NCBI RefSeq assembly: GCF_024362785.1
Contig: NZ_CP093301.1
Coordinates: forward strand, 1,178,001 to 1,242,000
Reading direction: 5' to 3'
Length of the DNA stretch: 64,000 nt
Source: Evansella sp. LMS18
GTDB taxonomy: Bacteria; Bacillota; Bacilli; Bacillales; Salisediminibacteriaceae
The notes beneath the pieces were generated by a model that ran no database searches, was not told the DNA's origin, and saw only the letters and a program-made list of their open reading frames with translations. The position numbers and the translations under genes are program-made. This document shows, piece after piece, positions 41,638 to 44,280 of the stretch; the stretch's first letter is position 1, and every line of letters begins with the position of its first letter.

Positions 41638-42555
41638 ATGAAGCCTGATTTCATAAAACTCCGCACCGAACCGCTTGAACTGACTCTTCTCAAACTTCTC
41701 CGTTCCCGTTTTGTCCTTTCCGAAGAAACCAACAACTACTATTTAAGCAAATTAAAAGGTTATGAAGGCGAGTGCTACCTGGACTCCCTGCTGGCAACTT
41801 TAACGAGCAACTCTCTCATCCTCGGCGATCTCCTTTTTGAGCAAAACAACACCACTTTCCAGATTGATACCTTGCTGCTCTCTCAAAAGACCATCTATCT
41901 TTTTGAAGTGAAGAATTTCGAAGGCGATTATTACATCAAAAATGGTGACTGGTACAGAAAATCGACAGGCAAGGCAATAACAAACCCAGTCCACCAGCTA
42001 AAACGCTGCGAAACCCTCCTTCGCTCGCTCCTTCATTCACGGAATATCAGGATGGAAATTGAACCTTACCTTGTTTTCACAAACCCTCTTTTCACCTTAT
42101 ATCAAGCCCCGCTTGATCTGTCTGCTTATTTCCCGGCACAGTTAAATTCTTTGTTAAAGAAACTGAATCAAGCCCCTTCTGAATTGAATGGAAGCCATCA
42201 ACAGCTGGCACAATTTCTTTTAAGCAAACATGTAATTGATTCACCATACAAGCGCCTTCCAGGATACCGGTATGAAGATCTCCAAAAAGGAGTAACTTGC
42301 AGGAAGTGTATGTCCCTTAAGGTAACAAAAACCAAGTACACCACAATCTGTACTAATTGCAGGCATGAGGAAAAAAATACATCATGCATCTTACAGGCCA
42401 CAAAAGACCTGAAACTACTGTTTCCAGATAGACTGCTAACCTTAAATGCAGTAGATCATTGGTGCGATCACTTGTATTCCAGGAAAGCAATCAAGAGTGT
42501 CTTGAGGTTAAACTATAAATTAATTAATAAGGGGAAGAACTCTTACTATGTATAA
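41638..42555 (+). CDS. NERD (nuclease-related) domain protein with zinc ribbon
   Basis: 305 residues; AAGGGG lies 11 bases before the ATG. The N-terminal half has the NERD pattern: GYEGECYLDSLL, then QIDTLLLSQKTIYLFEVKNF with the D...EVK residues of the nuclease-like core. Two CxxC pairs (CRKCMSL and CTNCRHEE) form a C-terminal zinc ribbon. NERD proteins are related to PD-(D/E)XK nucleases; few have been tested. Isolated gene followed by a repeat array. Confidence 0.8.
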   Translation: MKPDFIKLRTEPLELTLLKLLRSRFVLSEETNNYYLSKLKGYEGECYLDSLLATLTSNSLILGDLLFEQNNTTFQIDTLLLSQKTIYLFEVKNFEGDYYIKNGDWYRKSTGKAITNPVHQLKRCETLLRSLLHSRNIRMEIEPYLVFTNPLFTLYQAPLDLSAYFPAQLNSLLKKLNQAPSELNGSHQQLAQFLLSKHVIDSPYKRLPGYRYEDLQKGVTCRKCMSLKVTKTKYTTICTNCRHEEKNTSCILQATKDLKLLFPDRLLTLNAVDHWCDHLYSRKAIKSVLRLNYKLINKGKNSYYV

Positions 42556-43426: not shown

Positions 43427-43670
43427 TCTTCATCACCCCGCCTTTTTTATATTATTTTTGTGGAAAAAAGAGGAATTTATACACCACCAACGGTATTCCT
43501 GCTATTATTTTATGATTCATCCATAAAAATGTGACAAGCTCTCTCACCAACAACAGAATTAAGTCCTGCAAAATTAGTAACTTGTTCAGCAACTCAAAAT
43601 TGTCACCGTCCATTTTTACCGGCCCATGTCATATCTTATACTCCCGCACCTATATCCGTTCATCCCGCAA

Positions 43671-43704
43671 TAAAAAAATCCCCCTCCTTCATCAAGGAGA
43701 GGGT
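43671..43704 (-). terminator. Terminator of the peroxiredoxin gene
   Basis: Leftward, CCCTCTCCTT pairs with AAGGAGGGGG and is followed by ATTTTTTT; it starts 9 bases after the TAG stop. Confidence 0.9.
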
Positions 43705-43712
43705 ACAATTCA

Positions 43713-44177
43713 CTATATCAATTCCTCAAGCTGCCGGATACATGCTTCGTAATCCTCCCGGGCATCCGCTTTAAATGCAGTGTTCTTATAGACTAATTCA
43801 CCGTTCTTGTTAATGATGAATACTGATCTTTTAGCAGTGAGATCCTCTTCATTCAGCACTCCATAAGCCCTCGCCGTTTCCTTAAACCAGTCGGAGAGCA
43901 GAGGATAAGGAAGCGTCCCCAGGCTTGCTTCAAAAACATTATGGGAGTATATATGATCGACGCTTACCGCTAAAACTTCTGTATCAAGCCCTTCCAGTTT
44001 TTCGTAGTCCTCTTTCCAAGAGGTTAGTTCTCTAATTCAACCAGGGGTAAAATCAAGCGGGAAGAAAGCAAGAAGAATATTTTTCTCTCCTCTGTAGTCT
44101 TCCAGGGAAATCTTTTCCTTCCTGGTCGAAGATAAATAAAAGTCCGGCGCTGCCGAACCAACTTCAGGTTCCGCCAT
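43713..44177 (-). CDS. Peroxiredoxin (AhpC/TSA family) with in-frame UGA at the catalytic Cys codon, candidate selenoprotein
   Basis: AGGAGGTGGGCTTA precedes the ATG at 44177. The frame runs 155 codons to TAG (43713-43715) with a single internal stop, TGA at codon 47 (44037-44039). The flanks read LLAFFPLDFTPG-(UGA)-IRELTSWKEDYEKLEG, exactly where peroxiredoxins have the peroxidatic Cys (FTPxC). The rest is a complete thioredoxin-fold peroxidase: VLAVSVDHIYSH, LGTLPYPLLSDW, TAKRSVFIINKNGELVY, and a Cys at 146 that could resolve the oxidised site. If UGA is read as selenocysteine the product has 154 residues and reduces peroxides. A hairpin like a bacterial SECIS lies 13 bases after the UGA (44009-44023). 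The alternative is a one-base nonsense mutation of TGC/TGT. Confidence 0.8.
44009..44023 (-). promoter_or_regulatory. SECIS-like hairpin downstream of the in-frame UGA
   Basis: Read leftward: CCTCTT GGA AAGAGG, a perfect 6-bp stem with a GGA loop. The loop begins 19 bases after the UGA and has G in its first two positions. This fits the general bacterial SECIS pattern (short stem-loop, loop about 16-37 bases after UGA, early loop G). Chance occurrence of a small stem cannot be excluded. Confidence 0.6.
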
Positions 44178-44280
44178 TAAGCCCACCTCCTACACAAGCA
44201 GCTCCGCCATTCAGACTGGATCACTCTGTTTCGCTGAACAGTTTATGCTTGTTTTATAACTAAGCTATTCCCTCATTTCT

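What the first reader, a model, noticed from the sequence alone, without database searches (positions are those of the whole stretch)
43713..44177. Candidate selenoprotein: peroxiredoxin with UGA in place of the catalytic Cys codon and a SECIS-like hairpin
Seen: a 155-codon frame with a good ribosome binding site and terminator is open except for one TGA at codon 47. That codon sits exactly at the peroxidatic Cys position (FTPG-U-IREL), and nothing else is decayed. A perfect 6-bp stem with a GGA loop begins 13 bases after the UGA. Known: Sec-containing peroxiredoxins exist in some bacteria, and bacterial SECIS elements sit just downstream of the UGA. Inferred: the UGA is read as selenocysteine. 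An ordinary gene caller would miss or split this gene.
Basis: partly seen in the sequence, partly recalled or inferred. Interest (0 to 1): 0.9.

Follow-up and report, generated by a model that had tools for sequence, protein, structure and literature searches.

The report
Selenocysteine peroxiredoxin gene in Evansella-like Bacillaceae
The stop codon in the middle of this antioxidant-enzyme gene is almost certainly read as selenocysteine, because dozens of related bacteria keep the same stop codon and a matching small RNA hairpin just after it, so the gene is a real selenoprotein of an already known type.

Summary
It encodes a 154-aa AhpC/TSA peroxiredoxin with one in-frame UGA (44039-44037, codon 47) at the peroxidatic position. 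Sequence evidence strongly supports selenocysteine. The genome has selA, selB, selD and tRNA-Sec within about 6 kb. Of 299 genomes (own included), 31 carry an orthologue; all 31 have UGA there and tRNA-Sec (146 of 299 have it overall). A scan of GTDB genomes found 109 relatives and kept 80: all 80 have UGA, none Cys. The hairpin (6 bp, GGA loop, 13 nt after UGA) pairs in all 168 cells of 28 distinct sequences; two pairs change on both sides, in one lineage; its codons are among the most synonymously conserved. In the single sequence the hairpin is unremarkable (z 0.04), and its energy misses a published SECIS bound: conservation is the evidence. No Cys orthologue was seen. RefSeq's annotation of a Planococcus orthologue already runs through the UGA. 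Verdict: a real Sec peroxiredoxin, a new member of a known kind. No protein-level evidence exists here; the reductant is unknown.

The parts
43713..44177 (-). Sec-peroxiredoxin gene, 154 codons plus TAG stop
   Evidence: Open except one TGA; Pfam AhpC-TSA 112.1 bits, cut-off 26; AlphaFold mean pLDDT 94.0; Foldseek E 2e-16 to solved peroxiredoxins
44037..44039 (-). Sec UGA codon (codon 47, peroxidatic position)
   Evidence: UGA in 31/31 orthologues of 299 genomes and in 80/80 kept scan loci of 109 found
44009..44023 (-). SECIS-type hairpin: 6-bp stem, GGA loop, 19 nt between UGA and loop
   Evidence: 168/168 cells paired in 28 distinct sequences, 2 pairs with change on both sides; 449 of 450 cells paired in 75 loci; synonymous conservation
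44186..44191 (-). ribosome binding site AGGAGG, 8 nt before the ATG
   Evidence: sequence printed
43670..43703 (-). intrinsic terminator (10-bp stem, 4-nt loop, then ATTTTTTTAT)

Best explanation
The gene makes a small, single-chalcogen peroxiredoxin (AhpE-like in fold and length) whose peroxidatic residue is selenocysteine. Shown from sequence: the UGA lies at the peroxidatic position, the full Sec machinery is in the genome, and the downstream hairpin is under RNA-level selection. Inferred from known biology: SelB-GTP carrying Sec-tRNA(Sec) binds the hairpin just 3' of the UGA and delivers Sec at codon 47, so the ribosome reads on to TAG. The selenolate, polarised by Thr44 and Arg117, reduces peroxides. 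The selenenic acid is then resolved by an outside thiol or thioredoxin-type reductant, since no second Cys is conserved throughout the family.
For: Frame and position; PF00578 112.1 bits; T44, residue 47 and R117 invariant in 31 sequences. Machinery in own genome: tRNA-Sec 62.2 bits, cut-off 47, ARAGORN anticodon tca; SelB 363 bits, SelA 542.6 bits, SelD 415.2 bits, all over cut-off; SelD itself has a UGA; a second UGA peroxiredoxin; two partial FdhA-type matches, below cut-off, with one TGA each. Conservation: 31/31 orthologues UGA; 80/80 kept loci; in a 398-genome class sample, own included, all 7 matches at E 1e-28 or better have one TGA, 4 of them orthologues; a plasmid copy. Co-occurrence with tRNA-Sec: 31/31 against 115 of the other 268 genomes (Fisher p 3.6e-11, not corrected for relatedness). 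Hairpin: 168/168 paired; no shuffle of 500 as high for percent paired, cells changed on both sides or covariation score; codons +5, +6, +8, +9 rank 1, 2, 5 and 7 of 82 sites for synonymous conservation. UGA is an ordinary stop in 7 of 39 window ORFs of at least 150 aa.
Against: No protein evidence. The hairpin's energy in the single sequence is no lower than in shuffles (z 0.04), and 42-nt folds reach the -7.5 kcal/mol of the published model in only 20 of 75 Bacillota loci. In one search the weaker measures do not stand out (pairs changed on both sides: 11 of 500 shuffles as high; further pair types: 500 of 500); the both-sided changes come from one lineage (L026/L049), and shuffles ignore relatedness. 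Hairpin codons +5 to +10 against all other sites give p 0.014 only. In the WTPVU sister family one genome (G065, 100% complete by markers, 200 contigs) and one incomplete genome (G005, 76%) have the UGA gene without a tRNA-Sec over cut-off.
Confidence: 0.96

Rival explanations
1. The UGA is a mutation or sequencing error in a decaying or ordinary Cys gene.
For: A single in-frame stop is the usual look of a young pseudogene (general knowledge); the hairpin in this sequence alone is not exceptional.
Against: Same UGA in 31/31 orthologues of 299 genomes and 80/80 kept loci from many genera; the 31 frames hold no further stop and align along their length.
Confidence: 0.01
2. UGA is read through by a near-cognate tRNA or by programmed read-through without selenium (for example as Trp or Cys), the hairpin acting as a read-through stimulator.
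For: A downstream stem can stimulate read-through (general knowledge, recalled); no direct proof of Sec.
Against: Orthologues were found only in genomes with tRNA-Sec (31/31, against 0 of the 153 without); the codon sits exactly at the catalytic Cys; the machinery is complete.
Confidence: 0.02
3. The organism reassigns UGA genome-wide.
For: None found.
Against: UGA terminates 7 of 39 non-overlapping window ORFs of at least 150 aa, and a dedicated tRNA-Sec gene is present.
Confidence: 0.003

Closest known systems
Sec-containing bacterial peroxiredoxins (TxxU; PMC13188914, passages and section 5 read; it cites one from Eubacterium acidaminophilum)
   Same: AhpC/TSA family, PxxxTxxU motif, UGA at the peroxidatic position, hairpin just downstream
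   Different: Scores 69.6 bits against NCBIfam PrxU (NF040737, cut-off 270), so not that equivalog; found here in Bacillaceae, allied families and Chloroflexi MAGs, with no Cys orthologue seen
Mycobacterium tuberculosis AhpE (PDB 4x0x, 5c04, 5id2; 1-Cys type recalled)
   Same: Same length class and fold: TM-score 0.89-0.90 by query and 0.88-0.90 by target, 32-34% identity
   Different: Cys enzyme; reductant and substrate preference of the window protein are untested
Typical 2-Cys peroxiredoxins (plant BAS1/PrxA 5zte; Chlamydomonas 6j13)
   Same: Best Foldseek and best sequence scores among solved structures
   Different: The window protein is shorter (154 aa) and no resolving Cys is conserved throughout the family
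WTPVU peroxiredoxin family of the same order (found here; 12 members read)
   Same: UGA at the same place in all 12 read and a stable downstream fold
   Different: TGA hits in this score range are 37-46% identical to P0001; a separate clade; a different hairpin; in two loci next to a GrdB/PrdB-like UGA ORF

Membership tests
Bacterial selenoprotein gene | in-frame UGA at a redox-active position, conserved in orthologues | tested here: met
   31/31 and 80/80 kept of 109 UGA
Bacterial selenoprotein gene | selA, selB, selC and selD in the genome | tested here: met
Bacterial selenoprotein gene | Cys in place of Sec in homologues | tested here: met
   Cys in distant PrxQ- and AhpC-type homologues only; no Cys orthologue seen
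Bacterial selenoprotein gene | selenium in the protein / full-length product | not testable with these tools
   needs mass spectrometry or 75Se labelling
bSECIS consensus model (as given in PMC13188914) | 3-9 nt loop, 4-16 bp stem, G in the first two loop bases, 16-37 nt between UGA and loop | tested here: met
   6 bp, loop GGA, 19 nt
bSECIS consensus model (as given in PMC13188914) | MFE at or below -7.5 kcal/mol | tested here: inconclusive
   -6.5 for 53 nt of the window gene; 20 of 75 loci reach -7.5 in 42-nt folds; the authors' folding window is not known to me
Peroxiredoxin (AhpC/TSA, PF00578) | profile over cut-off, PxxxT(S)xxC/U motif and conserved Arg | tested here: met
   112.1 bits, cut-off 26; T44 and R117 invariant in 31, P40 in at least 90%; R117 also in 37 with the Chloroflexi copies, which have Ser at 44
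PrxU (NCBIfam NF040737) | score over 270 bits | tested here: not met
   69.6 bits
AhpE-type 1-Cys peroxiredoxin | no resolving Cys | tested here: inconclusive
   Cys146 is shared with the nearest orthologues only, not invariant in 31
AhpE-type 1-Cys peroxiredoxin | reduction by an outside thiol or redoxin | not testable with these tools
   no conserved neighbour gene that would hint at one

The most novel reading that the evidence does not exclude
This is a Sec-obligate peroxiredoxin family: it exists only as a selenoprotein and is lost, not converted to Cys, when Sec decoding is lost. It carries a compact, nearly sequence-frozen SECIS (CCUCUU-GGA-AAGAGG) that is read partly by base identity by the SelB of Bacillaceae and allied families, and that an energy cut-off of current SECIS finders may pass over.
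Probability: 0.5. Interest if true: 0.5.

Novelty: new member of a known kind. Interest (0 to 1): 0.42.

Why it matters
It adds a widespread Sec peroxiredoxin group to Bacillaceae and allied families, of which many are aerobic soil and salt-lake bacteria (lifestyle recalled, not tested). It gives a natural set of near-identical short hairpins for testing how little RNA a SelB needs. By inference, copies not recognised as selenoproteins are split or missed at the UGA by plain table-11 gene calling (as in the ORF list).

Tried and rejected
Rejected: pseudogene or sequencing error, genome-wide UGA reassignment, Sec-free read-through (see rivals). Rejected as support: the hairpin's energy in the single sequence. 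Gene neighbourhood for a partner or reductant: no ORF cluster recurs in more than 13 of 81 loci within 4 kb (some loci are cut short), so no conserved partner was seen. Plasmid scan: 294 records match, 15 listed; among these one orthologue, on a Planococcus plasmid, again UGA; the Acetoanaerobium hit is an ordinary Cys enzyme. GrdB (PF07355) was not found in the own genome, but nothing rang in the controls either, so absence is not shown. Rfam RF00010 (RNase P) was searched by mistake in place of tRNA-Sec. The first tree lacked, by a script slip, the 11 further rows (10 Cys, 1 UGA) I meant to add and so held 2 Cys rows only; the second holds them but has weak inner support (8 of 30 inner branches starred), so the order of the Sec and Cys groups is left open. 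Papers: the searches listed none whose title or abstract start names this subfamily; the library holds only openly licensed papers.

Full report
What is there. The minus strand 44177..43713 holds a 154-codon frame with a TAG stop, one internal TGA at codon 47, a ribosome binding site 8 nt before ATG and a strong terminator after the stop. The product is an AhpC/TSA peroxiredoxin (PF00578 112.1 bits). Its model has mean pLDDT 94.0 and matches solved peroxiredoxins, among them M. tuberculosis AhpE at TM-score 0.89-0.90 by query and near-equal length. The UGA takes the place of the peroxidatic Cys in PLDFTPGU; Thr44, residue 47 and Arg117 are invariant in 31 sequences.

Machinery. The own genome (one contig, 4.90 Mb) has tRNA-Sec at C1:4870198-4870290 (62.2 bits, cut-off 47; ARAGORN anticodon tca). 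Next to it lie SelB (363 bits), SelD (415 bits) and SelA (543 bits), all over curated cut-offs. SelD itself needs a UGA read (AGUGCKI). A second UGA peroxiredoxin (FTFVUPTE, C1:351249-351626) and two partial formate-dehydrogenase-type matches, below cut-off, with one TGA each point to further use of the Sec trait. UGA is an ordinary stop elsewhere: 7 of 39 window ORFs of at least 150 aa end in it.

Relatives. Of 299 genomes (own included), 31 have a match at E 1.4e-50 or better, then a gap to 1.7e-29. All 31 have exactly one TGA, and all 31 have tRNA-Sec over cut-off (read by eye off the tables). Overall 146 of 299 have tRNA-Sec; in the same search 5 of 14 control genomes ring, Bacillus subtilis not among them. 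Fisher p = 3.6e-11, not corrected for relatedness. At E 1e-24 or better, 2 of the 55 listed matches have no stop; both are PrxQ-type. A scan of GTDB genomes found 109 relatives and kept 80 (29 not seen). Although one of its two search patterns was for Cys, all 80 have TGA: 75 Bacillota loci from Evansella, Salipaludibacillus, Litchfieldia, Neobacillus, Mesobacillus, Rossellomorea, Fictibacillus, Alteribacillus, Alkalicoccus and others, and 5 Chloroflexi MAGs. These sets overlap: L066 is the E. clarkii genome that is G003. In a class-wide sample of 398 genomes, own included, 7 match at E 1e-28 or better, 4 of them orthologues, all with TGA. A Planococcus plasmid copy also has TGA, and its RefSeq CDS (WP_332309485.1) runs through it.

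Hairpin. CCUCUU-GGA-AAGAGG starts 13 nt after the UGA. In the single sequence it is not unusual: z 0.04, and 4.7% of synonymous recodings give a Watson-Crick hairpin of the same class. Across 28 distinct sequences all 168 cells pair, and percent paired, cells changed on both sides and covariation score exceed all 500 shuffles. Two pairs change on both sides (11 of 500 shuffles as high); the count of further pair types does not stand out (500 of 500). Slid versions fall to 64-69% paired. The both-sided changes belong to one lineage (L026/L049), so the number of events is small, and the shuffles ignore relatedness. In 75 Bacillota loci 449 of 450 cells pair; the one exception is L096. Thr, Ser, Lys and Glu codons of the hairpin (+5, +6, +8, +9) rank 1, 2, 5 and 7 of 82 sites for synonymous conservation; codons +5 to +10 against the rest give p = 0.014. 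The Planococcus copy changes the residue at +5 to Leu but keeps the stem with a G-U pair (read by eye; the 42-nt fold shows a shifted stem with a larger loop instead). The 5 Chloroflexi copies have other sequences that fold at the same place, though without G in the first two loop bases in those folds. Against a published bacterial SECIS model (PMC13188914, section 5 read), geometry and loop G are met. The -7.5 kcal/mol energy bound is missed by the window gene (-6.5) and by 55 of 75 loci in 42-nt folds.

Mechanism. Shown: UGA at the catalytic site, complete machinery, RNA-level conservation of the hairpin. Inferred from established knowledge: SelB-dependent Sec insertion, selenolate peroxidase chemistry, an outside reductant. 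No resolving Cys is invariant and no neighbour gene is conserved, so the reductant is open.

Exceptions told. Two genomes with the WTPVU sister gene lack a tRNA-Sec over cut-off: G005 (76% complete) and G065 (100% complete by markers, 200 contigs), also with laxer filters. This does not touch the orthologue set but is unexplained.

Known or new. Sec peroxiredoxins are known: PMC5029168 (passages and section 14 read) counts 91 in 78 organisms; PMC1794560 (passages) counts 3 selenoproteins in Bacillales in 2006; PMC1088965 (passages) counts 43 Prx genes in the Sargasso Sea data. PMC9312934 (passages) and PMC13188914 (passages and one section) list the TxxU peroxiredoxin family. None of the paper searches listed a description of this subfamily, and no NCBIfam equivalog fits it. 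I file it as a new member of a known kind.

Noticed in passing
own genome C1:351249-351626 (-), locus L062: Second UGA peroxiredoxin, AhpC-like with FTFVUPTE and a stem-loop after the UGA.
   Followed up: partly
L063 and L064 (genomes G065, G005): A WTPVU peroxiredoxin with UGA lies directly beside a GrdB/PrdB-like ORF with UGA (AGUPLCHRTV; name recalled from motif) in Bacilli; no tRNA-Sec over cut-off was found in these two genomes.
   Followed up: partly
own genome C1:787122-787874 (-) and C1:4357913-4358677 (+): Two partial formate-dehydrogenase-alpha-type matches, below cut-off, each with one in-frame TGA.
   Followed up: no
window 44159-44141 (-): A terminator-like hairpin with a T-rich tail inside the first codons of the gene; conservation not tested.
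   Followed up: no
window 41638-42555 (+): 305-aa ORF downstream, convergent; its only NCBIfam match is far below cut-off (MADS6, 32.5 of 460 bits).
   Followed up: no
L159 (Planococcus lenghuensis plasmid NZ_CP019641.1): The orthologue sits on a plasmid typed as mobilizable, which hints at horizontal spread.
   Followed up: no
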